Shown: positions 3,613 through 43,860 of the stretch, one piece after another
Position numbering within the stretch: the stretch's first letter is position 1
Layout: each line of letters starts with the position of its first letter
Assembly: GCA_012841015.1 (NCBI GenBank)
Contig: DUVN01000030.1
Span: 1 to 64,000, forward strand
Reading direction: 5' to 3'
Source: Clostridiaceae bacterium
GTDB lineage: Bacteria > Bacillota > Clostridia > Saccharofermentanales > DTU023
DNA length: 64,000 nt
Program-made: the position numbers and the translations under genes
Notes under the pieces: model-generated
What the model was told of the DNA's origin: nothing
Database searches by the model: none
Seen by the model: the letters and a program-made list of their open reading frames with translations, nothing else

Positions 3613-3745
3613 GGCCACCAATTCGTGGGAGCACATTGACATAACATCCAACAGCTGGCTGGGCCACCAACTCGTGGGAGCGCACTCAAGGATCGCATAC
3701 GCTTCTTTCGCATACTCGGCAGGGCCAGCAACTCGTGGGAGCGCA
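3613..3745. repeat. Three-copy interspersed direct repeat (array A), unit GGCCACCAACTCGTGGGAGCGCA
   Basis: Units start at 3613, 3662 and 3723 (periods 49 and 61), right after the RDD stop codon; CCAC/GTGG mini-hairpin in the unit. Confidence 0.85.
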
Positions 3746-3979
3746 GCTTCCGGTGTGAGTGGTTGGATACTGTTTGAGGTGAATAAGAGTTCTCGCGGAC
3801 GAGAGGTTGGCATTGTAAGGTTAAATTTTCGATGCAAAGGCGTATAAGACAGAGTTCGCGTTATCATTAGGGAGGCACCACGCTTTAAGGTGTCAGATAT
3901 AGACGCACGAATGCAGTCATCGTCCGATCGATCGATTCGACGGTACAGCCCCTACGTGCATTGAAGGAGTGAGCGTAGT

Positions 3980-4897
3980 TTGACGATGGAACAAAATCAC
4001 CAACCGCTAGTCAGTAATGTCCATGATACTGCCTTAATCTTTGAAGGTGGCGGTATGCGTGCCAGTTACACATCAGGTTTCGTGGCGATGCTTCTCGAAC
4101 AGGAGATTTATTTCGATTATGTAGCAGGAATTTCTGCAGGTTCATCGCTGACCATTAATTATCTATCGCGCGATTTAGATCGCACGAGACGAAGTTTCAC
4201 AGAATTTGCATCAGATCCTTCATTCGGCAATCTGAGGTCATGGCTAAAAGGCGAAGGTTTTTTCAATTCCGAGTACATCTACTCTGAATCGCCAAAACCG
4301 GGCGGAGCGATACCATATGATTACGATGCATTCAGCAGGAATGACGCAGAGTGCGTGATCGGTGCTTTCAATCGTGATCAAGGCAAGATGGTTTATTGGC
4401 GTCGAAAAGACATTCAGTCTTTCAATGACTTGAGCTTGCGCGTACGGGCTTCATCAACAGTACCATTTTTGATGCCTGTGACAAAAATTGACGGTGAAGA
4501 TTATGTCGACGGTGGTCTTGGTTCAGGCATTGCGATCGAGCCCGCTATTGAGGATGGGTATCAACGATTTGTGTTCGTTATGACGCGCGAGCGCGGATTC
4601 CGTCTGAGTCCCCCTGCCAGATTAAAGATCGCTGACTTGCTGTTTAATCATCGTCCGATTGAAGTTGAAGCGATCAAGACGCGCTACATTCGGTACAACA
4701 AGGTACTTGAGCGAATTGAAGAGCTTGAGCGTCAGGGACGGGCGTACGTTTTTTATCCGGAGGCGCTCGATGTCACGCTCATTGAGCGTGATACGCACAG
4801 GCTACTAGAACAGTATCAACGTGGTTATGAGCAGGCATACAGAGAATTGCCCGCACTGTTGCGTTTTCTCGGCGTGAACACATGGGGACTGCCATGA
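3980..4897 (+). CDS. Patatin-like phospholipase family protein
   Basis: FEGGGMRASYTSGF oxyanion motif, GISAGSS (GxSxG), DGG dyad (VDGGLGSG). Confidence 0.9.
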   Translation: MTMEQNHQPLVSNVHDTALIFEGGGMRASYTSGFVAMLLEQEIYFDYVAGISAGSSLTINYLSRDLDRTRRSFTEFASDPSFGNLRSWLKGEGFFNSEYIYSESPKPGGAIPYDYDAFSRNDAECVIGAFNRDQGKMVYWRRKDIQSFNDLSLRVRASSTVPFLMPVTKIDGEDYVDGGLGSGIAIEPAIEDGYQRFVFVMTRERGFRLSPPARLKIADLLFNHRPIEVEAIKTRYIRYNKVLERIEELERQGRAYVFYPEALDVTLIERDTHRLLEQYQRGYEQAYRELPALLRFLGVNTWGLP

Positions 4898-5064
4898 GGA
4901 CTACCTAAAGAAATTATCTTTTGGTCTACTTTGGTGCAAGAACTTCTAGTGAAATCGCATGATGACGATGCATAAATAATAAGAGGAATGTACAGTAAGT
5001 ATGATAGAATAATAAACGGTCATATTGATCGTTCTGATCAAAATTACTTTTTTCAGGAGGTATC

Positions 5065-6141
5065 ATGTACAAAAAACTTTTTATCCCAGGTCCAACAGAT
5101 GTCGATCCTCGCGTGTTGGAAAAAATGGCGACGCCCATGATTGGGCACAGAACTAAAGAAGCAACTGAGTTGCAAAAGAGCATTTCGGAAAAAATGCAGA
5201 AATTGATGTATACGGACGATACTATACTCCTGTCGACTTCGTCGGGGACAGGTTTAATGGAAGGCTCTATCCGCAGTTGCACGCGTAAGCGAGCGGCTGT
5301 TTTTTCCGTCGGCGCATTCGGAAATCGCTGGCATCAGCTTGCAACAGCGAACAACGTTCCTGCCGACATCTTCAAGTCGGAACCCGGGCAGCCTACGACA
5401 CCGGAAATGGTGGATGAGGTACTTAAAACGGGCAAATACGACGTGGTCACAGTTACACACAATGAGACGAGCTCCGGTGTTGTGAATCCGTGTAAAGAGA
5501 TTGGCGACGTGATTCGCAAATACGATGACGTCCTATACCTCGTCGACGCCGTCTCTTCGCTCGGCGGCGACAAAGTGGAAGTCGATGCGTGGGGTATTGA
5601 CTGCTGTATCACATCGACACAGAAGTGTCTCGCGCTTCCGCCCGGACTCAGCCTTTGTTCCATCTCCGATCGCGCGCTCAAAGCGGCGGAACAGGTGGAG
5701 AATAGAGGATATTATCTTGATATTCTGCGCCTTTACAAACGCGTCGCAAAGGATTTCCAATACCCGTCGACACCGTCTCTTTCGCACATGTTTGCGCTTG
5801 ACTACCAGCTTGACCGTATCATGGAGGAAGGTCCTGAGAACCGCTTCGCCCGTCACAAGAAGTTGGCGGACAAAGTGCGCGCTTGGGCATTGAAGCATTT
5901 CGGACTCTTCGCCGCGGAAGGCTACCGCTCTAACACTGTGACATGCATCAGCACGCCGCCCGGTTTCGTGTTCAGCGAGCAGCTGAGCAAGCCGATGCTC
6001 GAGCGCGGTTACAGGCTCGGTGGAGGTTACGGTGATTTCAAGAGCACGACATTCCGTATCGCGACGATGGGAGAACTCCAAGAGGAGACGCTCGATGAAG
6101 TCATCGCGGCGATGAATGAAATTCTCGGATTGGAGGCGTAA
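5065..6141 (+). CDS. Class V aminotransferase (phosphoserine / serine-pyruvate aminotransferase type)
   Basis: LFIPGPTDVDPRVLEKMATPMIGHRTKE, VTHNETSSGVVNP, DAVSSLGG, STQKCLALPPGLS; AGGAGG RBS upstream; followed by serA. Confidence 0.87.
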   Translation: MYKKLFIPGPTDVDPRVLEKMATPMIGHRTKEATELQKSISEKMQKLMYTDDTILLSTSSGTGLMEGSIRSCTRKRAAVFSVGAFGNRWHQLATANNVPADIFKSEPGQPTTPEMVDEVLKTGKYDVVTVTHNETSSGVVNPCKEIGDVIRKYDDVLYLVDAVSSLGGDKVEVDAWGIDCCITSTQKCLALPPGLSLCSISDRALKAAEQVENRGYYLDILRLYKRVAKDFQYPSTPSLSHMFALDYQLDRIMEEGPENRFARHKKLADKVRAWALKHFGLFAAEGYRSNTVTCISTPPGFVFSEQLSKPMLERGYRLGGGYGDFKSTTFRIATMGELQEETLDEVIAAMNEILGLEA

Positions 6142-6143
6142 TC

Positions 6144-7040
6144 ATGGCGTTAATTCTTGCAAATGACGGTATTGATGCATCAGCGAAACAGGCCCTAATC
6201 GACCTCGGTCATGAGGTTGACACGGTGAAATATGAAGGTGATGCGCTTTTGGCGAGACTGGCGGAAGTTGACGCAGTCATTGTCCGTAGCGCGACAAAAT
6301 TGCGAAATCCCGAGATCGATGCAGGGGCAGCAGGCAATCTCAAGCTGATCATCCGCGGAGGTGTCGGCGTCGATAATATCAATGTCGATTATGCTAAGGA
6401 AAAAGGTATCGAAGTTCGCAATACCCCCGCTGCATCGAGTAGTGCTGTTGCAGAACTGGCCCTAGGTCATATGCTTTGCCTCGCGCGCCACATCGGCGAA
6501 GCAAACGTGACGATGCGCCAGGGTAAATGGTTAAAAAAGCAGTATTCAGGCACGGAGATTGCCGGCAAGACACTTGGACTGATCGGTTTCGGTCGGATCG
6601 CGAGGTCCTTGGCCGTTAAATGTCTCGCGCTCGGCATGGATGTAATTTTCCACGATTGTCTCCAGCTTGAAGGCGACAACTGCGAGCAGAAGTGCTTGGA
6701 AGACGTGCTGCGCGAATCAGATTACATTTCACTACACGTTCCGTTTTCCGGCGGAAAACCGCTCATCGGGAAAGAAGAGTTCGACATCATGAAGGACGGT
6801 GTTTTTGTCATCAATTGCGCACGTGGTGGTGTCGTCGATGAAGACGCGTTGGTTGAAGCGATCGAATCCGGGAAGGTGGCGGGTGCCGCTTTGGACGTCT
6901 TTGAAGTTGAGCCGTTCGACAATGAGCGCATTAGGAATTGCAACAAGATCTCCCTGACGCCGCATATTGGCGCCGCGACGGCGGAGGCACAAGCGCGCAT
7001 CGGCGACAACATCGTCGACATCATAAAGGAGAGACTGTAA
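6144..7040 (+). CDS. serA: D-3-phosphoglycerate dehydrogenase family protein
   Basis: IRGGVGVDNINVDYAKEKGIEVRNTPAASSSAVAELALGHML; LGLIGFGRIA; VINCARGGVVDEDAL; LTPHIGAAT. Confidence 0.88.
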   Translation: MALILANDGIDASAKQALIDLGHEVDTVKYEGDALLARLAEVDAVIVRSATKLRNPEIDAGAAGNLKLIIRGGVGVDNINVDYAKEKGIEVRNTPAASSSAVAELALGHMLCLARHIGEANVTMRQGKWLKKQYSGTEIAGKTLGLIGFGRIARSLAVKCLALGMDVIFHDCLQLEGDNCEQKCLEDVLRESDYISLHVPFSGGKPLIGKEEFDIMKDGVFVINCARGGVVDEDALVEAIESGKVAGAALDVFEVEPFDNERIRNCNKISLTPHIGAATAEAQARIGDNIVDIIKERL

Positions 7041-8288
7041 ATGGCTACCGTTAGACCTTTTAGAGCAATACGACCCGACCCCGCACTTGCCGAGCAGGTC
7101 GCATGCTTGCCTTATGACGTGATGAATCGTCAGGAGGCGAAGGCGATGGCGGAAGGTAATCCCTACAGTTTTTTACGCGTCGTTCGCTCCGAACTGGAGC
7201 TCCCGGAAACGGTCGGCGACTACGATGACGCTGTCTATGAGCACGGTTGTGCCAATTTGCGACGGATGATCGAAGACGGCATCCTTCAGAAGGATGAACG
7301 CCCTTACTTCTATGTCTATCGCCAAGTCATGGACGGTCGTCCGCAGACGGGACTCGTCGCGACGGTGTCGGTCGATGAATACATCGAGAACAAGATTCGT
7401 CGCCATGAGTTTACAAGGAAAGATAAAGAAGTGGACAGAACGCGCCATTTCGACGTCTGTAATGCGCACACGGAGCCCATTTTTCTGACGTATCGTCAGC
7501 GCGATGACATCTCTCGTCTAATCAATGATTTCGTGGAATACAACGATGCGACGTACGATTTCAGGACTGACGACGGCATTATGCATCAGCTGTGGGTGAT
7601 TGACGACGCGGAGACGATCGTCGAGCTAGAGACCCAGTTCCGCGACGTCGACATTCTTTACATCGCTGATGGGCATCACCGTACAGCTTCGGCTGCAAAT
7701 GTCTCGCTGAAGCGTCGCGAGGAAAACCCGGACGCACCCGAGGACGCGGAGCAGAACTATTCGATGGCGGTCGTGTTCCCCGACGAAGATTTGTACATCA
7801 TGGATTACAACCGCTTGGTCAAAGATCTGAACGGATTGTCGCAGGATGAATTCTTTAACCGCCTTGGCGCCATTTACGCCATTGAAAGAGTGGAGGACGC
7901 CTTCCACCCGACGCGCAAGGGCGAGATTTGCATGTACTTCGGCGGCGAGTGGTATCGATTGACGGCTCCTGACTCGATCTATGAAGGACTCGACCCTGTT
8001 GACCGTCTCGACGTCTCGATCCTACAGAATAACGTTCTTTCACCGATCCTTGGTGTAGAAGATCCGCGTACGTGTGAACGGATCGATTTTGTCGGCGGTA
8101 TACGCGGTCTAGGCGAATTGAAGCGCCGCGTCGATGATGACGACTGGGCCGTTGCCTTTGCGATGTTCCCGACGACAATGGACGAGCTTCTGACAGTCGC
8201 CGATGCCGAGATGATTATGCCGCCTAAGTCGACGTGGTTTGAACCGAAACTCCGTTCGGGGCTGTTCATCCACGACTTGCAAGACTAG
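7041..8288 (+). CDS. DUF1015 family protein
   Basis: MATVRPFRAIRPDPALAEQVACLPYDVMN...NPYSFLRVVR...IADGHHRTASA, typical of DUF1015; adjoins serA directly. Confidence 0.87.
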   Translation: MATVRPFRAIRPDPALAEQVACLPYDVMNRQEAKAMAEGNPYSFLRVVRSELELPETVGDYDDAVYEHGCANLRRMIEDGILQKDERPYFYVYRQVMDGRPQTGLVATVSVDEYIENKIRRHEFTRKDKEVDRTRHFDVCNAHTEPIFLTYRQRDDISRLINDFVEYNDATYDFRTDDGIMHQLWVIDDAETIVELETQFRDVDILYIADGHHRTASAANVSLKRREENPDAPEDAEQNYSMAVVFPDEDLYIMDYNRLVKDLNGLSQDEFFNRLGAIYAIERVEDAFHPTRKGEICMYFGGEWYRLTAPDSIYEGLDPVDRLDVSILQNNVLSPILGVEDPRTCERIDFVGGIRGLGELKRRVDDDDWAVAFAMFPTTMDELLTVADAEMIMPPKSTWFEPKLRSGLFIHDLQD

Positions 8289-8353
8289 GCGTGCGACCGT
8301 TGCAATGAATCGGGTGGCGAGCATATGATTCTCGATCATCCGTTTATAGTAAA

Positions 8354-9604
8354 ATGGTTGCAAATCAAGAAATAAGAGCCCCCCATGCCGATGATTGTGC
8401 GTCGGCGGGGGGCTTTTTATCTCTTTTTGAAGCGCCGGAACCAATCGTTGGGCTTGCACCGATGGCGGGATTCACGGAATCTTCTTTCCGCTCGATTTGT
8501 GCTGATGAGGGTGCTTCTTTTACGGTGACGGAGCTAGTCTCAGCGCGCGGGATTCGGTTCGATCATAAGCTGACACGGTCGGAGCGCTATCTTATGCCGA
8601 CAAAAGGCGAACGACCGTGGGGCATCCAGCTATTCGGGTTCGATCCTGATGATTTTTCATATGCTATTGAAAGACTCCTGTCTGATCCTGATTATGCTTC
8701 ATCATCTTTTATCGATATCAACATGGGCTGTCCCGTCCAAAAAGTAGTGCGTGACGGAGGCGGTGCCGCCTTAATGAAGACGCCTGAACTTGCCGGAGAA
8801 ATTGTCGCCGCTTCGGTCAAAGCAGCTTCGTCATATGGGACGCCTGTCACAGTGAAAATTCGTTCAGGATTTGATGCCGATCATATTAACGCCCCGACGA
8901 TCGCGCGTATTGCAGAAGAGGCAGGGGCGGCAGCCGTAACGGTCCATGCTCGGACGCGTGATCAATACTATAGCGGTCAAGCCGACTGGCAAGTGATCAG
9001 GCGCGTGCGCGAGACCATATCGATACCTCTTTTTGGGAACGGTGATATAACCTCATTCAACGATCTGATTCGAATGAAGAGTGAGACGCAATGCGACGGA
9101 TTCCTAATCGGTCGGGCGGCGCGCGGCAATCCGTTTCTATTTCATCTCATCAGGCGAGCTTGTCAAGGAGATATGAGCCTTCATACTGCACATCGCTGCC
9201 TGCCTTGTTCGGTATCCTCAGAGAAGAGTCGAAACAGTGTGGGGACACGATCGGCCTACCGCCACTGGAAGGCACCTTGTGGGTACAACGACACCCAGAT
9301 AGCTGAGAGTGGCCGCACTTTAACATTCCAAGAGCAAACACTGCTCGACGTTCCGAGCGACTATTGGTTAGAAATAACGACACGACATCTTGATGACATG
9401 ATATTTAATCTTGGCGAATACACAGCGATTCGCGAAATGCGCACACAATTTGCGCATTACTTTCGAGGGTTTCACGGCGCAAGCGGGCTTCGAAATAGAA
9501 TCATGCAACAAGAAAAACGCGATGGCGTCGTTGCCTTACTTGAAGAGGCGGCACAACAAAGAGAAGCTTCACGTCTAATATTTCGCGATGCGACTCGTTC
9601 TTGA
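8354..9604 (+). CDS. dus: tRNA-dihydrouridine synthase
   Basis: GLAPMAGFTESSFRSIC, DINMGCPVQKVVRDGGGAALMKTPELAGEIV, VTVHARTRDQYYSGQADW, GDITSFNDL..CDGFLIGRAARGNPFLF. Start codon uncertain. Confidence 0.88.
   Translation: MVANQEIRAPHADDCASAGGFLSLFEAPEPIVGLAPMAGFTESSFRSICADEGASFTVTELVSARGIRFDHKLTRSERYLMPTKGERPWGIQLFGFDPDDFSYAIERLLSDPDYASSSFIDINMGCPVQKVVRDGGGAALMKTPELAGEIVAASVKAASSYGTPVTVKIRSGFDADHINAPTIARIAEEAGAAAVTVHARTRDQYYSGQADWQVIRRVRETISIPLFGNGDITSFNDLIRMKSETQCDGFLIGRAARGNPFLFHLIRRACQGDMSLHTAHRCLPCSVSSEKSRNSVGTRSAYRHWKAPCGYNDTQIAESGRTLTFQEQTLLDVPSDYWLEITTRHLDDMIFNLGEYTAIREMRTQFAHYFRGFHGASGLRNRIMQQEKRDGVVALLEEAAQQREASRLIFRDATRS
8377..8418 (+). terminator. Intrinsic-terminator-like hairpin after the serine-type operon, inside the predicted 5' end of dus
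   Basis: AGCCCCCCatGCCGAtgattgtgcgTCGGCgGGGGGCTTTTT: long GC-rich stem followed by T-run. Confidence 0.75.
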
Positions 9605-10008
9605 AGAGATCATTTGGCAAGACGTGATGATCGTATCAACTTGTCGCATATTTGAAAAGAAATACGAGAGCAGTCCACCTGTACCTCTGTTGGTGATGGC
9701 ATTATATAGCCGATAGCAGCCGATAGAGCGGTGTCCCTCCTGTTTGTTTGAAAAGCGTTAGTTTGTTCACTTTAGCAGATTTGGATGGAATCGTCTTTTT
9801 TTTGCACCTGCAAATACATTGCACGATCTGGCCTTCTTCGAGCGAGATTTGCAAAGACTTTTGCAGTATAAAAAGAGAAAACCCTCTGAGAGACCTCTGT
9901 CTTAGGCCTTTCAGTGGTTTCCTCAAATCCTCGGAATGTTGTGAACCAGATCTTCAGCCTATCATTCAGATTGCTTACGATCTTTATCTAATAATACCTT
10001 TCCTAAAC

Positions 10009-10899
10009 TTATTGAAAGTCAATGTATTTCACAGCAATATGAGGGATCGTCTTAGTAAAGGGACTTCCATATGTCTTCAGTCCGTAATATACTCCATAAA
10101 ATGTCACAATGTTGTCTTCTAGTCCGAGTGGCATAATACTGCCATCTAGAGAGTCAACGTATACGGCATCGACCCAGTCATGTCCTTTTTGGGTAACATT
10201 AATGACATAGGCAAGGTAAAAGTGCTCTTCCCTAGCATAATCAACTTTGCCAGTAATTTTCACATACCGACCCTCGTATTTCCTAGGATTACGAGCCAGT
10301 TCGTTATATGAAATGGACTCGCATTGAGCTTTGTATTGTTCCTCGGGCGACAAGTCTGAACATTTGATTTCAAGAGGAACCTCTTCACCTTTGTAATGGA
10401 TAGTTAAAATGGACGTTTCTCCCGCGCGAAGGGTTTTCTCATCAGTAGTGATCCAATCACTAACCCTTTCAGATGTTCCATTTTTATAGTGAGCAGTTAC
10501 GATGACATCATCATCACCCGATCTGATTGTTGTTCCCTCCGTCGTATCTCCCACATATTGAACCGTTATTTTCTCTAAAGCTGAAGTGCTACACTTTACG
10601 ACTATTTCTCTAGAAAAATCACCATAAGTAACGACAACTATCGCATGTTCATCCGCCCTTAAAGTTTGAGGGTTTTCAATTTTCCAATTTTTGATTGTTT
10701 CCTCTTTACCATCACTGGTGATTCCCATTACGATAATGTCTTCATTATTTTTGTCTAAAACAACGCCCTCGCTGGTATCACCTTTGTAAGTTACTACAAT
10801 TGATATAAATTTGTTTCCGCAACCAAATACTGTGATCGAAGAAATACTGATGCACAAGAGCAAAATAACTAGTTTTTTCCAGGAATTAATCTGTTTCAT
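10009..10899 (-). CDS. Lipoprotein with two Ig-like repeats and a C-terminal OB-like domain
   Basis: MKQINSWKKLVILLLCISISSITVFGCG lipobox; two ~75-aa repeats (ISIVVTYKGDTSEG.. / ITVQYVGDTTEGT..); start moved from 10959 to the lipoprotein signal Met. Confidence 0.6.
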   Translation of the reverse strand: MKQINSWKKLVILLLCISISSITVFGCGNKFISIVVTYKGDTSEGVVLDKNNEDIIVMGITSDGKEETIKNWKIENPQTLRADEHAIVVVTYGDFSREIVVKCSTSALEKITVQYVGDTTEGTTIRSGDDDVIVTAHYKNGTSERVSDWITTDEKTLRAGETSILTIHYKGEEVPLEIKCSDLSPEEQYKAQCESISYNELARNPRKYEGRYVKITGKVDYAREEHFYLAYVINVTQKGHDWVDAVYVDSLDGSIMPLGLEDNIVTFYGVYYGLKTYGSPFTKTIPHIAVKYIDFQ

Positions 10900-11270
10900 A
10901 ACGTCATTCTCCACGTTTATCAGTCTGCTTTGCAGACAATCGTTCTTTGTGTTACACATTAGCGAGAGACATTAAAATAAATATATATATTAGGTTTCGG
11001 ATGTGTCAAGTTCTTGGCGTATATCCAATATATATTTGGTGTAATGAAAGGCGGGTGCTGGGTAAATCTTATCTTGCCATGTTGATAAATATTGCTCATT
11101 CCAAAATGTTTGGAAACCATCATTTTTCTACTGTGAAAGCTTTACCGCCATTTACTATGCCCCGTCCCCAACTCTGTCTTGATAACGCCCACTCTCAACA
11201 TGGTATGATATAAAGCGATTGTGAATGAGCGTGCGCACTGACGTGTAGTACGTTTTGGAGGCAAACATAA

Positions 11271-16955: not shown

Positions 16956-16975
16956 TCGATAGGATCGATATTTCA

Positions 16976-17774: not shown

Positions 17775-18097
17775 GTGAGGCTGTTTGCCGGTTTTTTACG
17801 ATGGAGTAAACTGAAAATTAATGCATGCGGGGGATAGACTAGTCGGCTGACCGATATTAGAAGAATGCTAGCCATTTTCTAAAATAAAATGCAGGGTGCC
17901 GTGTGAGAGGAAGAATGAAGTCGCACTATATCTAGCACTTGACTGCTTGGTTCTTGACTGACCTTGCCGGAGTGCTTTTCGTAGCTATGCAAAAATAGAA
18001 AAGTAACCACAGTCTGCCGTAAGCCCTTTAGGTAGTGTGCTAAGCTGGTCAATAATTGCGTTTTCGTCCGCACCCTCGCTGCACCTCCGTACTCAAA

Positions 18098-18252
18098 GTG
18101 GAAAATTTGTCCACAATCTGCTTGAAATCACGTGAAAATGGACAAAACTTACGCTTTCGGCAGGACTCAGTTACCCAAGGTGTCAATTTTGGCCACCATC
18201 GTCCTGAAAACGTTTGGAGCTGGCCAAAAATGACGCTTTCGGCACAGGTGTT
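18098..18252 (+). repeat. Two-unit tandem structured element upstream of the molybdenum hydroxylase gene
   Basis: Units share inverted-repeat arms (TTTGTCCA/TGGACAAA at 18106/18139; TTTTGGCCA/TGGCCAAAA at 18187/18221) and a conserved ACGCTTTCGGCA tail at 18151 and 18233. Confidence 0.6.
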
Positions 18253-26512: not shown

Positions 26513-26526
26513 TGTTACCTTCTTTC

Positions 26527-26815
26527 TTCAGTAGCTGACGGCACTTGCTGCAAGCAGGAATGAACCTTTATTTTCAGTAGCTGACGGCACTTGCTGCAAG
26601 CAGGAATGCGCCTCTTCCTTCAGTAGTTGACGGCACTTGCTGCAAGCAGGAATGAACCTTCTTTTTTCAGTAGCTGACGGCACTTGCTGCAAGCAGGAAT
26701 GAACCTCTTTTTTCAGTAGCTGACGGTGCTTGCTGCAAGCAGGAATGAATCTCGTTCTTCAGTAGCTGACGGTGCTTGCTGCAAGCAGGAATGAATCTCT
26801 TTCTTCAGCGGCTTC
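26527..26815. repeat. 46-bp tandem repeat array (array B), six near-identical units plus a degenerate seventh
   Basis: TTCAGTAGCTGACGGCACTTGCTGCAAGCAGGAATGAACCTCTT starting at 26527, 26573, 26619, 26666, 26712 and 26758; partial at 26804 overlapping the DUF364 stop. Confidence 0.95.
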
Positions 26816-27617: not shown

Positions 27618-27789
27618 TAGATTTGTCCGCCAAGTTTAGGGAGGTGCCGTTCACATCGCGGTAAAGACCGACAAGTGAACGGCTTGTCCATCTGCTTTAA
27701 GTTGCTGTTTCGGAGTTGTTTAATAACAACCGATAACGAAACAGCGTCCTATTTGCGTCCCCCTTTTTGTCCGAACTCCGGCATCGGTG

Positions 27790-28045
27790 TGCAGTTTTTC
27801 AGTTTATATCGATTTATTGGACTGTACACCCGATGCCGGTATGCAGTTTTTCAGTTAGTATTGTTTATTTGTACTGCGCGTCCAGTGTTAGTGTGCAGTT
27901 TTTCAAGTTTATTTGCAAAACTGTACAGAGAAATCTGCTCTCAAGCAGAGCACGCACAGTTTTTCAAGTCTAGTTGAAAAATTGTACAGATAATTGGTTC
28001 TCAGTAAGGCAGTACATTTTTTCAGTTAATATCGATTTTTTGATC
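27790..28045. repeat. Five-unit hairpin-forming repeat array (array C)
   Basis: CAGTTTTTCA(A)GTT... units with CAG(T/TTT) near 27792, 27844, 27896, 27957 and 28015; units 3 and 4 fold as CAGTTTTtCAA..TTGcAAAACTG and CAGTTTTTCAA..TTGAAAAATTG. Confidence 0.8.
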
Positions 28046-29265
28046 TACTTACTGAAATTGTGGCCGCGTGCAGTGCTTAGAAGTTCTTTAGCGTCGTCTT
28101 CGGTCAGTTCGATCTGATAGAAGAGTCCGAAGAAGTCGCGTACCTCTTGAACCATGTTGTATTGAAACACGTCAGGGTAGAGGGTGTTGGCGACGAAGCG
28201 GACGCCTAGATACTGTTGTGAAGAAGGAGGCCGATCGAGCCAGCTGTAAGGAATTCCGGGACCTTCATAGACGCGCCCCTCTTGGACAGCCTTAATGTTG
28301 GCCCAGTTGGGGTTCGTTGTGATTTCTTCATAGGGACTGTTTGGTCCGCCACCCATGAAAATGACGTCGGGATTCCAGTTAATGACTTGTTCTAGGTTGA
28401 CCGGCGTCATTCCGCTTCCACCCGCATCTTCAATATTGGCGACGTTGATCGCGCCGGCGTATTTAAATACGGCGGCGTGAGAGGATGACTCAGGCTCGGT
28501 CGCGAGACCATTCGGTTTTTCGGCATAATACAAGGTCACACGATCGTCTTCCGGAATGGCACTGACTTTTTCATTGACATCATTCAGCGTTTTCTCACAA
28601 TAAGCTGCAAGCTTTTCGCAGCGTTCTTCTTCTCCGAAGACTTTTCCGAGAAAGCGGTAGGCTGATGCGCGTTCCGGGAAACGACCGTTGACGAGGATGA
28701 CGGGGATGCCGAGCTGTGCTTGAAGCTCGTCACATGTTTCGCGAACCTTGTCGGAGATTTCCATGGGACCCATGTAAATAAAGGCTTGAGCGCCGGAGGC
28801 GAGTACTTCCTCCGTGTTCACCGACTTACCTCCGTCCGCGTTTCCGAATACTTTACGATCTTTCAGTCGTGGCAGGTACTTCAGTTGATTAGGGTTCGGT
28901 TCTGAGACGACACCCGCAAGCAGGTCGGGGTTGATGGTGTAAATCATCACCTGTGCCAGTGGGCTGGGGAAATAGACCTTCTTAAAGTTTTCAGGGGTCG
29001 GGACGGTGACTTCTCGATCTCCCATGTCTTTGATGACAACGGTGTCTGCGGCAGGCTCCGTAGCTTTCTCTGACTTGTCAGGCTGCGTGGTAGTCGTCGA
29101 GACGATTGGAGTAGACTTCGAAGCTGGCGGTGCGGTTGTATCGTCAGACGGTTCGGACTGTGCACATCCAGCCAACACAACGATCAAGACGGCCATCACG
29201 ATGGCAAGGTATGACCGCGTTTGTCTTTTTAATTCTCTCATAAGCTTTTCCTTTCTTCCTTTCAT
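28045..29265 (-). CDS. Fec/Btu-type ABC transporter substrate-binding lipoprotein
   Basis: VLIVVLAGCAQSEPSDD lipobox; VVIKDMGDREVTVPTPENFKKVYFPSP; cluster III binding-protein pattern. Confidence 0.87.
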   Translation of the reverse strand: MKGRKEKLMRELKRQTRSYLAIVMAVLIVVLAGCAQSEPSDDTTAPPASKSTPIVSTTTTQPDKSEKATEPAADTVVIKDMGDREVTVPTPENFKKVYFPSPLAQVMIYTINPDLLAGVVSEPNPNQLKYLPRLKDRKVFGNADGGKSVNTEEVLASGAQAFIYMGPMEISDKVRETCDELQAQLGIPVILVNGRFPERASAYRFLGKVFGEEERCEKLAAYCEKTLNDVNEKVSAIPEDDRVTLYYAEKPNGLATEPESSSHAAVFKYAGAINVANIEDAGGSGMTPVNLEQVINWNPDVIFMGGGPNSPYEEITTNPNWANIKAVQEGRVYEGPGIPYSWLDRPPSSQQYLGVRFVANTLYPDVFQYNMVQEVRDFFGLFYQIELTEDDAKELLSTARGHNFSK

Positions 29266-31345: not shown

Positions 31346-31352
31346 TGATTGT

Positions 31353-31496
31353 TGATTCTTGCGCGCCCGCAAGAGCTAAACCAAATGAGCCAATGTAATT
31401 GGTCCGATGTACCTGATTCTTGCGCGTCCGCAAGAGCTGCAATCTCTTCCAGTTCCCGTTCTTTCATCACCTGATTCTTGCGCGCCCGCAAGAGCT
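31353..31496. repeat. Three-copy interspersed palindromic repeat (array D), unit (CC)TGATTCTTGCGCGYCCGCAAGAGCT
   Basis: Units at 31353-31377, 31414-31438 and 31472-31496; unique 36- and 33-nt spacers; each unit folds as TTCTTGCG/CGCAAGAG. Confidence 0.92.
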
Positions 31497-31576
31497 TAAC
31501 ACGCCTACATTCAAACTCTTGACCGATCCTGGATGTTCTAATCCTTTCTTGTGATGGAAGGCATCGAATTGTTGTG

Positions 31577-33849: not shown

Positions 33850-33859
33850 ACAAAGACAC

Positions 33860-34270: not shown

Positions 34271-34304
34271 AAGACCTTCTTTCGCTGCTCCGTCTCAAAT
34301 CCAA

Positions 34305-34443
34305 GGCTTATTCCTGTAAACGTGGGCACTATGTCATCACCTCGTAATTGTGCGTGTCGATGTCGGGCTTATTCTTGTACACATGGGCACTATCTGAACC
34401 CCATACGGCCTTGCGGGCTTATTCCTGTTCACGTGGGCACTAT
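34305..34443. repeat. Three-copy interspersed repeat (array E), unit GGCTTATTCCTGTWCACGTGGGCACTAT
   Basis: 28-bp units at 34305, 34366 and 34416; periods 61 and 50; unique spacers of 33 and 22 nt. Confidence 0.92.
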
Positions 34444-35157: not shown

Positions 35158-35198
35158 GTTTTACAATCGTTTGTTCATGATGTGGATGACAAACCACT

Positions 35199-35247: not shown

Positions 35248-35269
35248 AACGAGCGATTCAGGAGGCGCT

Positions 35270-36277: not shown

Positions 36278-36326
36278 GAAGGAGCAATATTAAAAACAAT
36301 AAAATGATACGCTTAGGAGGTTCAGT

Positions 36327-37121: not shown

Positions 37122-37218
37122 CGATACTCGGCCTTAGCTGTTTGCTGTTCTCCGTCGCTTATCGGATGGGCACGACTTCTGAAGCCGATAAAAGGACAAA
37201 TCATAACGGTCTCATCTT

Positions 37219-37282
37219 GGCCGGGTCACTTTCCGACCTAGCCCGGCCTATCGATGCCCCGGCGCGGTTTTACCGCGCCGGG
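37219..37282 (+). promoter_or_regulatory. Two consecutive strong hairpins between modA and modB
   Basis: GGCCGGG...CCCGGCC (37219-37248) and CCCGGCGCGGTtttACCGCGCCGGG (37258-37282, perfect 11-bp stem). Confidence 0.7.
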
Positions 37283-37316
37283 TCCTTACTAGACCGAAGA
37301 TAAGAAAGTACAAACG

Positions 37317-38063
37317 ATGGATCTTTCACCGCTTTGGATTTCACTTAAAGTCTCAGCAACAGCAACAGTCGTCGCCTTTATAACTGGGATTCTCGCTGCA
37401 TGGCTCGTCGTATACATCGACAAAGGTAAGATCTTTATTGATGGACTATTCACGCTCCCTATGGTGCTCCCGCCAACTGTCTTAGGATTCATCTTATTGC
37501 TCATCCTTGGTAAAAACGGCGCAATTGGGCAATTTCTTGATCGGCTAGGTATTCATGTTGTTTTCAGCTGGGTCGGTGCGTCCATTGCAGCCGCTGTGGT
37601 CGCTTTTCCCATGATGTATCGGTCGGTTCGAGCTGCTTTCGAGCAACTTGATCCCGACCTCATCCACGTTGCGCGAACACTTGGGAAGAAAGAAGGATGG
37701 ATCATGTGGAACATAATGTTGCCCAACGCTTGGCCGGGCGTCTTGTCAGGCACTATCCTAGCTTTTGCTCGCTCGATGGGCGAGTTCGGTGCGACGTCAC
37801 TTCTTGCGGGAAACATCCCCGGGAAGACACGGACGATGTCACAGGCCGTTTGGTCTGCCGTTCAGATGAACAACCGCGAAGAAGCTAAACGGTGGTCCCT
37901 GATGCTCATCATCATCTCTTTTGTGGTGATCTATCTAACCAACCATGTCCTCAAACGTGAATCGTCGAGTCAGCGCAGCACATGGCTGGCACGTATACGA
38001 AGAAAAAAGTCAGCGGCAGATTTTGCTCGGAATGAAGAAATTGAAAAACAGGAACACTCATGA
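37317..38063 (+). CDS. modB: Molybdate ABC transporter permease
   Basis: LWISLKVSATATVVAFITGILAAWLVV; LPMVLPPTVLGFILLLILGKNGAIG; RSMGEFGATSLLAGNIPGKTRTM. Confidence 0.95.
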   Translation: MDLSPLWISLKVSATATVVAFITGILAAWLVVYIDKGKIFIDGLFTLPMVLPPTVLGFILLLILGKNGAIGQFLDRLGIHVVFSWVGASIAAAVVAFPMMYRSVRAAFEQLDPDLIHVARTLGKKEGWIMWNIMLPNAWPGVLSGTILAFARSMGEFGATSLLAGNIPGKTRTMSQAVWSAVQMNNREEAKRWSLMLIIISFVVIYLTNHVLKRESSSQRSTWLARIRRKKSAADFARNEEIEKQEHS

Positions 38064-39211
38064 ATAATGAAATGCAATCTGACACGCTTTACAATGAACC
38101 GTCGGAAAAGGCGGAAGTTGTCCGCTTGACAGTCGATGTGAAGCGGAATCTTGGGAAGTTCTCACTCGATATCCAATTTGAGCATGACAGCTCGCGCGGC
38201 ATTCTCGGCATCCTCGGCAGTTCTGGCTGTGGGAAATCAATGACGCTCAAGTGTATCTCCGGTGTCGTCCGCCCCGATCGCGGTTATATTGCACTTGGTG
38301 ACCATGTTTGGTACAGTTCTGCCAAAAGAATCTTCGTGAAACCGCGAAATCGCGGTGTCGGACATCTTTTTCAAGATTACGCACTTTTTCCAAATATGAC
38401 GGTCAGGGATAATGTGCTCGCCGGCATGCGGCAAGAGAAAAGAGAAAACCTTGCGCGTGTAGAGTCGCTTTTGCAATCCTTTTACATTCTCGACCAGGCC
38501 GATAAGTACCCGCGCGAACTCTCCGGTGGGCAAAAGCAACGCGCCGCTCTCGCAAGAGTGTTCGCGAGCAAGCCCTCCATCTTACTCCTTGATGAACCTT
38601 TCTCCGCTCTCGACGAGTATATTCGCTATCAGCTGGAACAAAATCTCTTTGAATACCTTGAACAGTACGACGGCATTGTCCTTTACGTCAGCCATAATCG
38701 CGACGAGATCCGACGTTTTTGTGATCAAGTGGTCGTTATGGAGGACGGTCACGCCATCTCCTACATGCCTGTCGTGAATCTCTTCGAGTCACCGTGGCAC
38801 TTTTCCTCAGCAAGATTGGCCGGTGTCCGGAACTTTTCCCACGCGGAAAAAAGAGATACGTATGAAATATTTGCGAAAGAATGGAATACATCGCTTACGG
38901 TACAATACCCGGTTCCTGATGATATTCGCCTTGTCGGTGTGCGCGAATCGTCCGTCAGAATCGTTATCCCAGACGGGCGCACGAGAGATTCTCAGCAGGG
39001 TGAAGTGGCCTACAACGTATTCAGCGCCACCGTACTGCGTATCGTTTCTGGGATCACATCGGATACGGCAGTGTTGCTTCCTTATGAACGAGATTCCGAC
39101 GAGTTGTTCGGAAAGATGTTCGTGACAATCGACAAAACGCACCCCCCACTTCTCGTCGGTGACCGTGTCGAGATCGCTATCCCTGAAACCGATATCATGT
39201 GCCTTAAATAG
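38060..39211 (+). CDS. modC: Molybdate ABC transporter ATP-binding protein
   Basis: LGSSGCGKSMTLKCISGV; LSGGQKQRAALARVFASKPSILLLDEPFSALD; C-terminal TOBE-like region. Confidence 0.93.
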   Translation: MNNEMQSDTLYNEPSEKAEVVRLTVDVKRNLGKFSLDIQFEHDSSRGILGILGSSGCGKSMTLKCISGVVRPDRGYIALGDHVWYSSAKRIFVKPRNRGVGHLFQDYALFPNMTVRDNVLAGMRQEKRENLARVESLLQSFYILDQADKYPRELSGGQKQRAALARVFASKPSILLLDEPFSALDEYIRYQLEQNLFEYLEQYDGIVLYVSHNRDEIRRFCDQVVVMEDGHAISYMPVVNLFESPWHFSSARLAGVRNFSHAEKRDTYEIFAKEWNTSLTVQYPVPDDIRLVGVRESSVRIVIPDGRTRDSQQGEVAYNVFSATVLRIVSGITSDTAVLLPYERDSDELFGKMFVTIDKTHPPLLVGDRVEIAIPETDIMCLK

Positions 39212-39339
39212 GCGCATGGGCGTTCCGAATCGCTGACAGTCCAGATGTTAGATCATCTGTTTTTGATGGGGATGTGAAACATCAAAAACTGCCAAATACA
39301 TTCGTACAACTTCTAATAACTTTATCTATAAAAATCTAT

Positions 39340-39489
39340 GAAAAACCTTGTAACTCTTAACTCTGTACAGCTTCCTATGATATCCCAACGAAAAACCTTG
39401 TAATTCCGTATAGATTCCTGCGACATCCCGAAGAAAAATCTTGTAACTCCGTACTGATTCTTATAACTTCCCGAAGAAAAATCTTGTAA
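39340..39489. repeat. Four-unit tandem repeat (array F) downstream of modC
   Basis: GAAAAAYCTTGTAACTCCGTA... starting at 39340, 39390, 39433 and 39476 (periods 50, 43, 43). Confidence 0.8.
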
Positions 39490-39889
39490 ATCACATTCGG
39501 CACATCATCAGCAAACCAGCGACAAATATCTTTTGCGCAACACACAATCTCTGCTCCTCCCCCCTCTCTCTTTCGCACAATTTTTCGCTATAAGTCGAAA
39601 AACTGTTATGAAAGGGTGTGTGAAGAGGAAGTTTAAGTGTTGCTGGGTTAAGAAAATGGTTTTAAGTTGAAAATCTGTGCATTGAGAGTGGGCGGGCGGA
39701 TGAGGGGGATGTTTTTGATGTTGAAGGGTTGCTTGAGCGAGGAGAAGGGGTTCGATCTGTGTGTGATTGTGCTTGGTTTTGAAAGAAAAATGAATTCTTA
39801 TTGTGCAGGAATGTGGCTAATCGAGTGTTGATACGTTTTGGCCGGGTGTAAGGCGATGTTTCTGTTTGATTTACGGCAGTTGTTTAACG

Positions 39890-39990
39890 CTCAAGAGATG
39901 AGGTAATTAAGGTGCTTGCGTTAATCGCACCGGGTGAATGACGCGCGCTCGAAACTCAAGTGACGCAGTGATTAAGGAGCTCGCGTTAAT
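39890..39990. repeat. Two-copy 36-bp repeat at 3' end of the DUF559 gene
   Basis: CTCAAGWGAYGMRGTRATTAAGGWGCTYGCGTTAAT at 39890-39925 and 39955-39990; second copy spans the stop codon. Confidence 0.85.
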
Positions 39991-40943
39991 ACCAATGGGA
40001 GGTTGGGGTGCCGGATGAGTCTGTTCCAAGCGGCAAGGTAGATTCTATACACGGTGCGGACTCCGGGAAATCGGGGAACTTCCCGCCAGTGGATTTTGCG
40101 GAAACGTGAGCGAAGGCTAAGTCCTTTCTTGAACAGCAGATCGCGCAAGGCTGCGAAGTTCTCAAAATACTTTCTCGCGCGAATGTAAATGCGTTTTCGT
40201 ATCAGACGGGAGAGTTGGCGCGCCAAGTTCTGAAAGGCTTTGAGGTCGTTCAGTTGTGCGTAGTTCACTGAAACGACTTGATAGCCTTCTGTTTCTAGAT
40301 GAGCCGTACGCTCCCGATCTTTTGATAATGCCGAGGCGCTGCTGTGAAATTCCTCACTGTCGTACTCGATATCGAGCTTACAGGAAGGGACGTAGAGGTC
40401 GGCAAAGTACGTTTTACCTCCTTCCAAAACGATCTTTTCATTGAGAACGATTTCACTAAAGCCGCAACCTCCGAGTGCATTGGGCAAACGCAGAAACATG
40501 TAAAGAATTGACTCCATCGGAGAGCGTGAGTTGTTGGCAAGATAGCGAATGGCACGGAGTGCTTTTCTGCGCCCGCGATGTCCTCGCAGTTCTTCTGCAC
40601 AAGCGCGTAATTCATCGACAGTGCAACGAGGCTGATCACCCCCGCGGTAAGAACAGATCTGAAGTCCGAGATAGATCAATTCATGAATGGTATACTCCTG
40701 AGCGACTTGAAGGAAAATGAGCGGGAGTGTACACGCTTGCCCCTTGACGTATTTCTCGGCGCCGGAGATACTGCACGTGTGTATTATGGCCCGATCGGGA
40801 CGGTAAAGGGGCTTATCTGTGAAGATAACGTACTCGTCAGGAAAATCTATGTCGTGAGGCTCGATGTTGCCTCGGATTGACGGTACTTTCCAATAATCAA
40901 GTGCAGATTTCCCGTAGATATACTTTTTGACGTTTTGGCTCAT
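39972..40943 (-). CDS. DUF559-type (Vsr-like endonuclease fold) protein
   Basis: KTYFADLYVPSCKLDIEYDSEEFHSSASALSKDRERTAHLETEGYQVVSVNYAQL, matching the DUF559 / very-short-patch-repair-like core. Confidence 0.65.
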   Translation of the reverse strand: MSQNVKKYIYGKSALDYWKVPSIRGNIEPHDIDFPDEYVIFTDKPLYRPDRAIIHTCSISGAEKYVKGQACTLPLIFLQVAQEYTIHELIYLGLQICSYRGGDQPRCTVDELRACAEELRGHRGRRKALRAIRYLANNSRSPMESILYMFLRLPNALGGCGFSEIVLNEKIVLEGGKTYFADLYVPSCKLDIEYDSEEFHSSASALSKDRERTAHLETEGYQVVSVNYAQLNDLKAFQNLARQLSRLIRKRIYIRARKYFENFAALRDLLFKKGLSLRSRFRKIHWREVPRFPGVRTVYRIYLAAWNRLIRHPNLPLVLTRAP

Positions 40944-41423
40944 GCCCGAAGTTTAGCGAGAGGCTTCAGATTTTTGGGAGGAAACAATTGCCTTACCTTG
41001 CGATAGCAGTCAATTTGTCGATATCGATAGCGTAAATTGAAGAAGAGAGTGCGCTTTCAAACGGATGTTCATCTCAAAGCTGTTGCATCAACTTTATTTT
41101 TTGATATTAAAATCGCCAAGTGCCGAATGTGGGTTTAAATATGTGCACTCAAAGAGTCATTCATTTCCTAGAGCTGACAGTTTCAGTACCCTTGTAAAAA
41201 GGCTTTTCCATATCTTGCTTTTATTGCAAATGTTCTTTACAACTCCAATTTTCACGTTCGGTCATCTTTAAACGGCGGGAAATTGAACAATTTTGCAGGT
41301 AGCCGAAGTAGTCAACAAAGGATGTAATTTGAACATTTTTATAGGTAAGCCAAGTACAAACGAACAGAAGTACGGCTAAAATTAGAATTATTTGAATTAT
41401 TGCCGATATTTTTCATTCCTTTC

Positions 41424-41476
41424 TTGACTTTTTACTCTAATCGGTTAGAATAAAAGATGCTCGAACGCGTTAGAGT
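41424..41476 (+). promoter_or_regulatory. Promoter/operator of the BlaI/BlaR1-like operon
   Basis: TTGACT-N16-TAGAAT with TCTAATCGGTTAGA (41436-41449) overlapping -10; wider inverted repeat TACTCTAA / TTAGAGTA. Confidence 0.6.
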
Positions 41477-41502
41477 ATTAGAAATTACATGCTAGGACGG
41501 AA

Positions 41503-41886
41503 GTGGGAATGAAGGAAACACCAAAAGTCTTTGAGAGTGAATACCGGTTTTGTCTGATTCTGTGGGAGCACGAGCCTATTAAAAGCGCGGAGCTTGTAAA
41601 GCTTTGCGAGGAACAGTTGGGCTGGAAACCTACGACGACGTATACTGTCATTAAGCGCCTATCCGATCGCGGTGTCGTGCAGAACGAAAACACGATCGTA
41701 ACTTCCCTTATCTCACAGGAGGAGGTACAGGCGGCAGAAATCAACGAACTTTTGGAAAAAAAGTTTGAGGGCTCCCTGCCGGCCTTTATCGCTACCTTTG
41801 CGAAGCACCAGAAGATTTCAGAGGACGAAATTGACGAGGTGCAGAAGATGATCGATCGATACAGGAGAGAGGCGGGAGATGAATGA
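41503..41886 (+). CDS. BlaI/MecI/CopY family repressor
   Basis: EYRFCLILWEHEPIKSAELVKLCEEQLGWKPTTTYTVIKRLSDRGVVQNENTIVTSLISQEE. Confidence 0.92.
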   Translation: MGMKETPKVFESEYRFCLILWEHEPIKSAELVKLCEEQLGWKPTTTYTVIKRLSDRGVVQNENTIVTSLISQEEVQAAEINELLEKKFEGSLPAFIATFAKHQKISEDEIDEVQKMIDRYRREAGDE

Positions 41887-43714
41887 GCTTTTCCTGAAGA
41901 TGATCAATATGGGGATAACGGCGACGTATCTCGCGGTGGCGGTTATCCTCATTCGGGCGGTTTTTCGCAAAGCGCCGAAGCGGGTATTTCCCTTTTTGTG
42001 GGGACTGGTCGCGTTGCGACTGATCATCCCTCTTTCCATTAAAAGCCCGCTGAGTCTGATCCCTAGCGGGGAAACTGTCAGTTCTGAGATTCTGGTTGCG
42101 GAAGAGCCGGCGATCAGTAGCGGTATCGCTTTCGTCAACCGTGTCGTCAATCCCATGATTGACGAGTCTTTGGCGCCTGATCCCGTTACCGGTGTCCATC
42201 CGGTGCAAACTCATGTCTCCGTTGCTGTCGTCATTTGGGTGCTCGGCATCGCGATGATGTTGCTTTATGCCTTGATCGGCACTCTGCGTCTGAGATGCAA
42301 TGTTAAAACGGCGATCCGGGTTCAGCCGGATGTATGGAAAAGCGATGCAATCGCATCTCCCTTTGTGCTCGGCCTTGTGCATCCGCGGATTTACCTCCCG
42401 TTTACGTTAGCCGACTCGGACATGGACTACGTGTTGGCTCATGAACGGGCGCACATTGCGAGAAAAGATCACTGGACGAAACCGCTCGGCTTCCTGTTGC
42501 TTACGTTGCATTGGTATAACCCGGTCATGTGGATCGCATACGTTCTCTTTTGCCGTGATGTGGAGTTTGCCTGTGACGAAAGAGTCATTAAAGGACTAAA
42601 TCGGGAACAAAGGGCAAATTATTCTCAGTCGCTACTCTCCTCAAGTGTTTCCCACGGTCGGCGTGCTAAAAGCCCTCTCGCTTTTGGCGAGATCGGGGTG
42701 AAAGAAAGAGTGAAACAAGTACTGAATTATAAGAAATCGGCTTTCTGGGTTGTTTTGGCTGTTGTCGTGGCCGGTGTCATTCTTGCCGTGTGTTTCTTGA
42801 CCAATCCTCTTAAACCGGACATTACTCCTTCTAAGCCGGAAGTAGATGTGGCGAAACCAACTGAAACAGATGTGTCGAATCCCTCTGAAACGGAAGTGGA
42901 GGATTCTTGGCCGGCGTTGGCGGATACTTGTGAGGATTATTCCGCGGAAGAGGCGGAGGCGGACTGCTGCATAGTATTTGACGGAGAAAATCTCTTGGCA
43001 GGAGAAAGGGCATGGGCGGATTTTGAAAACACGACTGCCTCCGGGCGCAAGGCGAAAGTGCGAATCTATCAGATGTATACCGATCAAAACTGGCGCTATA
43101 GCGTCAAGGAGCTGAGCTACGACGGCTCGACGTATCATCTGCAATTCTATGATCGAGATGAGAATGACAAGGAGTATTTGTTTTCGGAGCATTACCGGTA
43201 TCTGGTGACAAGCGGATACCAACCGGATCCTGAAAGACCTGATTGTTATTTGTATTATCTCCTTTCTGACAGCCCTGACGTGACTGCCGAGGGTTATTTG
43301 GCACACATGTTCAGTTCGTACTACTCACCGGATAGCCTCTATAACCATTGCATGAGACTGTTTAGCCGGCTCATTGACAACGCGTACCTTCTTCAACGTG
43401 GACATGGACTCGCCTTTGCCGACATTGACAACGACGGGAAAGAGGAAAAATGCTGTCTCGGCTATGGGCAAACCTCCGGTGTCGCCACCTTCACTTTGAC
43501 TGTTTTTGAAGGCGAGCAGTTCGAGTATGCCGGACTTTTCTCTCCAGCCCCAAACTGCGACATCAGCTTTTTGCAAGAAGAAGACGGTACGCTGAAAGTA
43601 CAGATGAGAGCTATAGGCACGGAGCATTCGTCTGTAATCGGGAAACTCTATGACATTGTTATGCGGGATGGACATCTCATTCTCGTGGGAGAGGACGGAG
43701 AGATTCTTCCGTAG
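41879..43714 (+). CDS. M56 family (BlaR1-like) metallopeptidase with non-penicillin-binding C-terminal domain
   Basis: VLAHERAHIARKDHW (HExxH), WYNPVMWIAYVLFCRDVEFACDE; C-terminal ~270 aa without recognisable SxxK transpeptidase motif. Confidence 0.87.
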   Translation: MNELFLKMINMGITATYLAVAVILIRAVFRKAPKRVFPFLWGLVALRLIIPLSIKSPLSLIPSGETVSSEILVAEEPAISSGIAFVNRVVNPMIDESLAPDPVTGVHPVQTHVSVAVVIWVLGIAMMLLYALIGTLRLRCNVKTAIRVQPDVWKSDAIASPFVLGLVHPRIYLPFTLADSDMDYVLAHERAHIARKDHWTKPLGFLLLTLHWYNPVMWIAYVLFCRDVEFACDERVIKGLNREQRANYSQSLLSSSVSHGRRAKSPLAFGEIGVKERVKQVLNYKKSAFWVVLAVVVAGVILAVCFLTNPLKPDITPSKPEVDVAKPTETDVSNPSETEVEDSWPALADTCEDYSAEEAEADCCIVFDGENLLAGERAWADFENTTASGRKAKVRIYQMYTDQNWRYSVKELSYDGSTYHLQFYDRDENDKEYLFSEHYRYLVTSGYQPDPERPDCYLYYLLSDSPDVTAEGYLAHMFSSYYSPDSLYNHCMRLFSRLIDNAYLLQRGHGLAFADIDNDGKEEKCCLGYGQTSGVATFTLTVFEGEQFEYAGLFSPAPNCDISFLQEEDGTLKVQMRAIGTEHSSVIGKLYDIVMRDGHLILVGEDGEILP

Positions 43715-43860
43715 GGATGTTGAAGGATTTACTTTGAAACGTTGACAACGATCAGTAGAACAGATCCTTCCTTCAAGGATGGTGAAGGATTCACTTTGAA
43801 ATATTGACAATGATCGGCGGGATAGCTCCTTCCGTCAGGGGATGGTGAAAAATTAGTTTT
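43714..43860. repeat. About 2.5 units of a 62-bp tandem repeat (array G) starting at the blaR1-like stop codon
   Basis: GGATGKTGAAGGATTYACTTTGAAAYRTTGACAAYGATC...CCTTCC at 43715, 43777 and 43840. Confidence 0.82.

What the first reader, a model, noticed from the sequence alone, without database searches (positions are those of the whole stretch)
3613..43860. Many intergenic spacers carry private, non-shared low-copy direct-repeat arrays
Seen directly: at least eight intergenic regions (3.6, 18.1, 26.5, 27.8, 31.35, 34.3, 39.34/39.9 and 43.7 kb) each hold 2-7 copies of a repeat unit found only at that site. Periods are 43-82 bp. Arrays tend to start or end at a stop codon (A at the RDD stop, B overlapping the DUF364 stop, G at the blaR1-like stop, the 39.9 kb pair across the DUF559 stop). 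Units are unrelated between sites, but the layout is alike. Inference: either a locus-local duplication process repeatedly acts on gene ends, or there is selection for arrays of short RNA/DNA hairpins in 3' regions. A dispersed mobile repeat (REP, BOX, MITE) would instead share its sequence between loci. This is the best candidate in the window for an undescribed phenomenon.
Basis: partly seen in the sequence, partly recalled or inferred. Interest (0 to 1): 0.72.

Follow-up and report, generated by a model that had tools for sequence, protein, structure and literature searches.

The report
Private CRISPR-spaced mini-arrays between genes
The repeat arrays between genes are real, but they are three different things: ordinary local duplications, two dispersed repeat families, and an odd class of about two dozen one-off mini-arrays that share the exact 28+33 base spacing of a CRISPR array, each with its own repeat, as if spacers had been inserted at many non-CRISPR places.

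Summary
The arrays exist and are far above chance: no dinucleotide shuffle of the spacers gives one at the same threshold. "Private" is wrong for three of the nine. The 18.1 kb pair belongs to an 82-bp-period palindromic family (28 clusters in 1.45 Mb of this genome, none in 0.9 Mb of relatives). The 27.8 kb array belongs to a hairpin family (11 clusters here, also in two related species). The 39.9 kb pair is conserved in related genome G002. Three arrays (26.5, 39.34, 43.7 kb) are ordinary tandem duplications; two of these include a gene's 3' end and are absent in a relative. A decayed, cas-less type I-E CRISPR in the same genome has the same 28+33 unit. In one array a duplicated spacer is 91% conserved, so spacers were different at birth rather than decayed copies. 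My best explanation, not proven, is scars of Cas1-Cas2-like spacer integration at non-CRISPR sites. No cas1, cas2 or cas6e was found in this genome, and no protospacers in phages.

The parts
3608..3745 (.). 61-class array: 28-nt repeats at 3608, 3657, 3718; spacers of 21 and 33 nt; just after the RDD gene stop
   Evidence: unit absent from the orthologous spacer of G002
31350..31500 (.). 61-class array: 28-nt repeats ACCTGATTCTTGCGCGTCCGCAAGAGCT at about 31350, 31411, 31469; spacers of 33 and 30 nt; between a methyltransferase gene and a FecCD permease gene
   Evidence: array found nowhere else in 14 genus genomes; the orthologous G011 spacer holds a different array
34303..34443 (.). 61-class array: ~28-nt repeats GGCTTATTCCTGTNNACGTGGGCACTAT at about 34304, 34365, 34415; spacers of 33 and 22 nt; upstream of a MoaE-like gene
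18090..18244 (.). two units of the dispersed 82-bp family (imperfect 55-bp palindrome plus ~27-bp linker)
   Evidence: 28 clusters in own genome, 0 in relatives; spacer replaced by unrelated DNA in L058/G002
27785..28059 (.). five units of a dispersed hairpin family, TGTGCANTTTTTCAATTAATATCGAATTTTTGTACTCG
   Evidence: 11 clusters in own genome, also G001 and G002
26517..26808 (.). 46-bp whole-unit tandem array, 6.2 copies, between DUF364 and MoeA genes; unit carries the 3' end of the DUF364 gene (TGAAGAAAGA)
   Evidence: G011 has a 16-nt spacer and no array
39358..39492 (.). 43-bp whole-unit tandem array, 3 copies
   Evidence: no other locus in own genome
39890..39990 (.). repeat pair (65 bp) over the stop of the REase-like (MTES_1575) gene; conserved in G002 with 61 bp spacing
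43701..43849 (.). 62-bp tandem array, 2.4 copies, first unit overlaps the end of the peptidase M56 (BlaR1) gene
   Evidence: single copy in G002

Best explanation
The finding lumps three processes. (1) Ordinary local tandem duplication, often taking in a gene's 3' end (26.5, 39.34, 43.7 kb). (2) Dispersed palindromic repeat families (18.1 and 27.8 kb). (3) A separate class of truly private arrays (3.6, 31.35, 34.3 kb and about 21 more in this genome) with CRISPR unit geometry: ~28-nt sharply bounded repeats every 61 bp, unrelated ~33-nt spacers, 2-4 repeats, and a different repeat at each place. For class 3 I think it most likely that a type I-E-like Cas1-Cas2 integrase, carried by the lineage in the past, inserted ~33-bp fragments at non-CRISPR intergenic sites, duplicating ~28 bp each time, sometimes repeatedly at the same site; the arrays have drifted since. 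Shown: the geometry, privacy, random spacers, spacers that are stable once present, an orphan I-E CRISPR with the same unit in the same genome, and one orthologous site shorter by two 61-bp units with a single repeat. Inferred: the enzyme, the direction of change and the source of the inserts.
For: Spacing between successive copies of private short repeats in 1.45 Mb: 61 bp 31 times, 62 seven, 60 three, no other value above 4. Identity is about 0.85 inside a ~28-nt core and 0.25/0.24 in the flanking spacers, so these are not tandem duplications. 61 is not a multiple of 3, so not repeats of an encoded protein. The genome's orphan array at C21:191.5 kb has GGATTACCCCCGCCTGTACGGGAACAAC with spacings 61, 61, 60, 61, close to the I-E repeat of G023, which has exact 61-bp spacing and carries cas6e and I-E cas2. 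In the 4-repeat array L194:8346, spacers 1 and 3 are 29/32 identical and repeats 1 and 3 about as much; the 39.9 kb spacer is 28/29 conserved between two species. Spacers therefore do not decay faster than repeats, and unlike spacers were unlike at birth. Own L051 array upstream of a thioredoxin-reductase-like gene: gap of 141 bp against 19 in G002, a difference of 122 = 2 x 61, with one repeat-like copy in G002. 61-bp pairs make up 25 of 103 here against 2 of 50 in outgroup clostridia (p = 0.0014). Private repeats resemble the I-E repeat more than shuffles do (z 3.0-6.3; reversed control z -1.4).
Against: No Cas1 in own genome (89.8% complete) and in only 2 of 14 genus members, where array periods are 64-69; no I-E Cas2 or Cas6e in the genus. 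No spacer source in phages, and none for three private spacers in IMG/VR. Off-target integration in the laboratory needs high Cas1-Cas2 levels, as I recall and as cited in PMC11788318, so two dozen natural loci is a lot. Repeats within an array differ by 0-25%, unlike active CRISPR. The resemblance to the I-E repeat is not specific: a repeat from G011, probably I-B, gives z 4.2. G002 could have lost units at L051. Some spacings are 49, 50 or 58.
Confidence: 0.42

Rival explanations
1. The 28-nt repeats are functional sites (protein-binding or RNA elements) held by selection at a fixed spacing of about six helical turns. Arrays grew by duplication and the spacers then drifted to randomness.
For: Fixed spacing; partial palindromes (mean folding energy -4.9 against -3.3 for random intergenic DNA); scattered compensatory changes, e.g. 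L028.
Against: Each locus has a different repeat, so two dozen different ligands with one spacing would be needed. Spacers do not decay faster than repeats where this can be seen. Hairpin conservation is only marginal (p = 0.077). Orthologous spacers in relatives lack the unit or hold a different array.
Confidence: 0.25
2. They are old, genuine type I-E CRISPR arrays and fragments, whose repeats diverged after the cas genes were lost.
For: Same 28+33 unit; weak in-register similarity to the I-E repeat; one undoubted decayed I-E array in the genome.
Against: Between loci the repeats are close to unrelated while copies within a locus are about 85% alike. Independent decay from one shared repeat would make copies within and between loci equally different. 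L040:6566 has two identical 28-nt repeats unlike any other locus.
Confidence: 0.1
3. Nothing but ordinary local tandem duplication with fast intergenic drift; the 61-bp peak reflects a preferred duplication length.
For: True whole-unit tandem arrays exist here, some at 62 bp (43.7 kb, L027, L049:16544, L163).
Against: Duplication copies the spacer too. Spacer identity is 25% in arrays whose repeats are 85-100% identical, and spacers are stable.
Confidence: 0.13
4. An undescribed integrase or transposition process, not Cas1-Cas2, makes ~28-bp target duplications around ~33-bp inserts.
For: No cas1 in most of the genus, although repeat-spacer pairs occur in relatives, some at 61 and more at 63-67.
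Against: Cas1-Cas2 already explains this exact geometry; no candidate enzyme was looked for beyond Cas families.
Confidence: 0.1

Closest known systems
Type I-E CRISPR arrays (orphan / cas-less)
   Same: ~28-nt partly palindromic repeats, ~33-nt unlike spacers, 61-bp unit
   Different: each array has its own repeat, only 2-4 repeats, copies diverged, no cas genes, no known protospacers
Spacer integration at non-CRISPR sites ('neo-CRISPR'; Nivala, Shipman and Church 2018, known to me from memory and from citations in PMC9456107 and PMC11788318)
   Same: new repeat-spacer-repeat units at arbitrary chromosomal sites
   Different: laboratory overexpression there; here about two dozen old natural loci, many with three repeats
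STAR-like elements and other 'false CRISPRs' (PMC5294841)
   Same: short intergenic direct repeats that look like CRISPRs without cas genes
   Different: STAR elements share one signature sequence over many loci; false CRISPRs there were chosen for lack of spacer diversity; these have diverse spacers and private repeats
REP/BIME-like palindromic repeat families
   Same: fits the 18.1 kb (82-bp) and 27.8 kb families: dispersed, palindromic, intergenic, clustered
   Different: fixed 82-bp head-to-tail spacing; no link to a RAYT transposase tested
VNTR / minisatellite tandem repeats
   Same: fits 26.5, 39.34 and 43.7 kb
   Different: nothing notable except that two units begin at a gene's 3' end

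Membership tests
Type I-E CRISPR array | direct repeats of about 28-29 nt at constant period (about 61) | tested here: met
Type I-E CRISPR array | unique, mutually unrelated spacers of constant length (about 32-33) | tested here: met
   spacer identity 0.25/0.24; length mostly 33
Type I-E CRISPR array | one repeat sequence shared by the system's arrays, near-identical copies | tested here: not met
   different repeat at each locus; 0-25% divergence within arrays
Type I-E CRISPR array | type I-E cas genes in the genome | tested here: not met
   no Cas1, Cas6e or I-E Cas2 in the 90% complete genome
Type I-E CRISPR array | spacers match phage or plasmid DNA | tested here: inconclusive
   no convincing match in phages or, for three private spacers, in IMG/VR; one spacer has a 23/24 self match in cysS; plasmids not searched
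Type I-E CRISPR array | leader next to the first repeat | not tested
   orientation of the arrays unknown
Non-CRISPR-site (neo-CRISPR) spacer integration | empty site with a single repeat copy in a relative | tested here: inconclusive
   L051 against G002: 122 bp shorter, one copy; polarity not proven
Dispersed REP/MITE-like family | same unit at many loci | tested here: met
   met for 18.1 and 27.8 kb; not met for the 61-class arrays
Minisatellite tandem repeat | whole unit repeated, including the part between cores | tested here: not met
   not met for the 61-class; met for 26.5, 39.34 and 43.7 kb

The most novel reading that the evidence does not exclude
In an uncultivated clostridial genus, CRISPR adaptation, or an unknown integrase with the same 28+33 footprint, has seeded dozens of private mini-arrays throughout the chromosome's spacers. 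It would leave a natural genome-wide record of off-target spacer integration, with a unit length that may follow the CRISPR type of each species (61 here; 63-67 in some relatives).
Probability: 0.4. Interest if true: 0.8.

Novelty: new variant of a known kind. Interest (0 to 1): 0.58.

Why it matters
If class 3 comes from spacer integration outside CRISPR loci, then CRISPR adaptation reshapes ordinary intergenic DNA in nature, new CRISPR loci can be born from arbitrary sequence, and the question of where CRISPR arrays come from can be tested in living lineages. If not, two dozen unrelated sequences spaced at exactly 61 bp need another cause.

Tried and rejected
Rfam: no match in the window or in L189. 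Conserved RNA hairpins in the 61-class: marginal only. Gene 3'-end specificity: weak. Coding repeats: rejected for 61, 82, 46, 43 and 62 bp, which are not multiples of 3. Specific descent from the I-E repeat: similarity is not specific to I-E. Base pairing of the 82-bp palindrome: many positions are symmetric but not complementary, so a DNA-level symmetric site is likelier than an RNA stem. Spacer sources: phages, IMG/VR, own genome, with only the cysS near match and a 20-nt viral match for an I-E CRISPR spacer that does not extend. Literature on natural off-target spacer integration: nothing direct in the held library; the 2018 paper itself is not held.

Full report
WHAT WAS CHECKED. The window is C10:1-64000 of a 1.79 Mb, 30-contig, about 90% complete draft genome. 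Thirteen other species of the genus are searchable; one of them, G002, is 'Clostridiaceae bacterium AS08sgBPME_361'. I took 1.45 Mb of the own genome, about 0.9 Mb of relatives and 1.35 Mb of other clostridia, called genes, and scanned all spacers for local direct repeats against dinucleotide shuffles.

All nine arrays are there and shuffles give none at the same threshold. But 'private' fails for three. The 18.1 kb pair belongs to an 82-bp-period family with 28 clusters in the own genome and none in relatives; its unit is an imperfect 55-bp palindrome plus a 27-bp linker. The 27.8 kb units belong to a hairpin family with 11 clusters here and members in G001 and G002. The 39.9 kb pair has an orthologue in G002, spacer included.

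ORDINARY DUPLICATIONS. 26.5 kb (46 bp x 6.2), 39.34 kb (43 bp x 3) and 43.7 kb (62 bp x 2.4) are whole-unit tandem repeats. At 26.5 kb the G011 orthologue runs from the DUF364 stop to the moeA start in 16 nt with no array; at 43.7 kb G002 has one copy of the gene end. Over all private arrays the 3' bias is weak: 20 of 45 against 13.5 expected.

THE 61-BP CLASS. The other three (3.6, 31.35, 34.3 kb) belong to a class with one geometry. Among private short repeats in this genome, successive copies are 61 bp apart 31 times, 62 seven times and 60 three times; no other distance exceeds four. The repeat core is about 28 nt with sharp edges, and the ~33-nt spacers are no more alike than random DNA, 0.25 and 0.24. 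Twenty-seven arrays have this spacing; one of them, L189, is the CRISPR described below and two (L049:16544, L163) are whole-unit 62-bp tandems, leaving about 24. Most have two or three repeats. Each locus has its own repeat; the whole 31.35 kb array is found once in 14 genus genomes. Outgroup clostridia lack the peak (2 of 50 pairs against 25 of 103 here, p = 0.0014). It is not coding: 61 is not a multiple of 3.

SAME UNIT AS A CRISPR IN THE SAME GENOME. At C21:191.5 kb lies a decayed orphan array of GGATTACCCCCGCCTGTACGGGAACAAC with spacings 61, 61, 60, 61. Its repeat matches the type I-E array of G023, also with exact 61-bp spacing, in a genome that carries cas6e and I-E cas2. The private repeats resemble this repeat more than shuffles do, but a different CRISPR repeat (from G011, probably I-B) does as well, so this speaks for a general palindromic CC...GG layout, not for descent.

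WHY NOT DUPLICATION PLUS DECAY. In the 4-repeat array L194:8346, spacers 1 and 3 are 29/32 identical, the same divergence as repeats 1 and 3. The 39.9 kb spacer is 28/29 conserved between species. Spacers are therefore not fast-decaying, and arrays with 85-100% identical repeats and 25% identical spacers were born with unlike spacers. At L051 the own array (three repeats) is 122 bp, two units, longer than the G002 site, which has a single repeat-like copy. Loss in G002 is not excluded.

TURNOVER. The orthologous spacer often holds something else: at 31.35 kb G011 has an unrelated array with 50-bp spacing; at 18.1 kb G002 has other DNA with a 65-bp repeat pair.

WHAT SPEAKS AGAINST. No Cas1, Cas6e or I-E Cas2 in the own genome and none of I-E type in the genus. 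No protospacers in phages, and none for the three private spacers scanned in IMG/VR. One spacer of the 31.35 kb array has a 23/24 match inside cysS, a single case among 47. Hairpin conservation is marginal. Some relatives show repeat-spacer pairs at 63-67 rather than 61 (13 against 9 at 60-62; own 4 against 25, p = 0.001), which might reflect other CRISPR types but rests on small numbers, and the excess at 63-67 over the outgroup is not significant (p = 0.11).

VERDICT. Mixed finding: two-thirds ordinary or dispersed repeats, one-third a well-supported, unusual class. That the 61-bp class is real and CRISPR-shaped is shown. That it arose by Cas1-Cas2-like integration is my best inference, about 0.42. 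No paper found in the held library describes dozens of natural private arrays of this kind; the closest are 'false CRISPRs' (PMC5294841) and the laboratory work on non-canonical spacer integration, known here only through citations.

Noticed in passing
G000:C21:191.5 kb (L189:11533-11800): Decayed orphan type I-E CRISPR array (about 5 repeats, 61-bp period) without cas genes, next to a REase-like (MTES_1575-type) gene.
   Followed up: partly
28 clusters, e.g. L026:11996-12386, L032:5407-5773, window 18090-18244: Species-specific 82-bp-period family: imperfect 55-bp palindrome plus 27-bp linker in head-to-tail arrays; absent from 0.9 Mb of relatives.
   Followed up: partly
L189:11990-12400, L191 ~9500, L249:17500-17900: Arrays upstream of the multi-copy MTES_1575/DUF559-like genes look like repeated copies of the gene's own start region (ATGAGCGATTAC...).
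   Followed up: no
window 31445-31468 and G000:C30:98674-98697: A spacer of the 31.35 kb array matches the inside of cysS at 23 of 24 bases.
   Followed up: partly
L150, L265, L058 (G002), L155 (G006), L009 (G009), L014 and L217 (G011): Repeat-spacer pairs in relatives lie more often at 63-67 bp than at 61, close to the unit length of I-B/I-C type CRISPR arrays.
   Followed up: partly
L004:2056-2143 (G005): G005 has its own 27-bp, 3-copy array downstream of the DUF364 gene, where the window has the 46-bp array; the next gene is different there.
   Followed up: no
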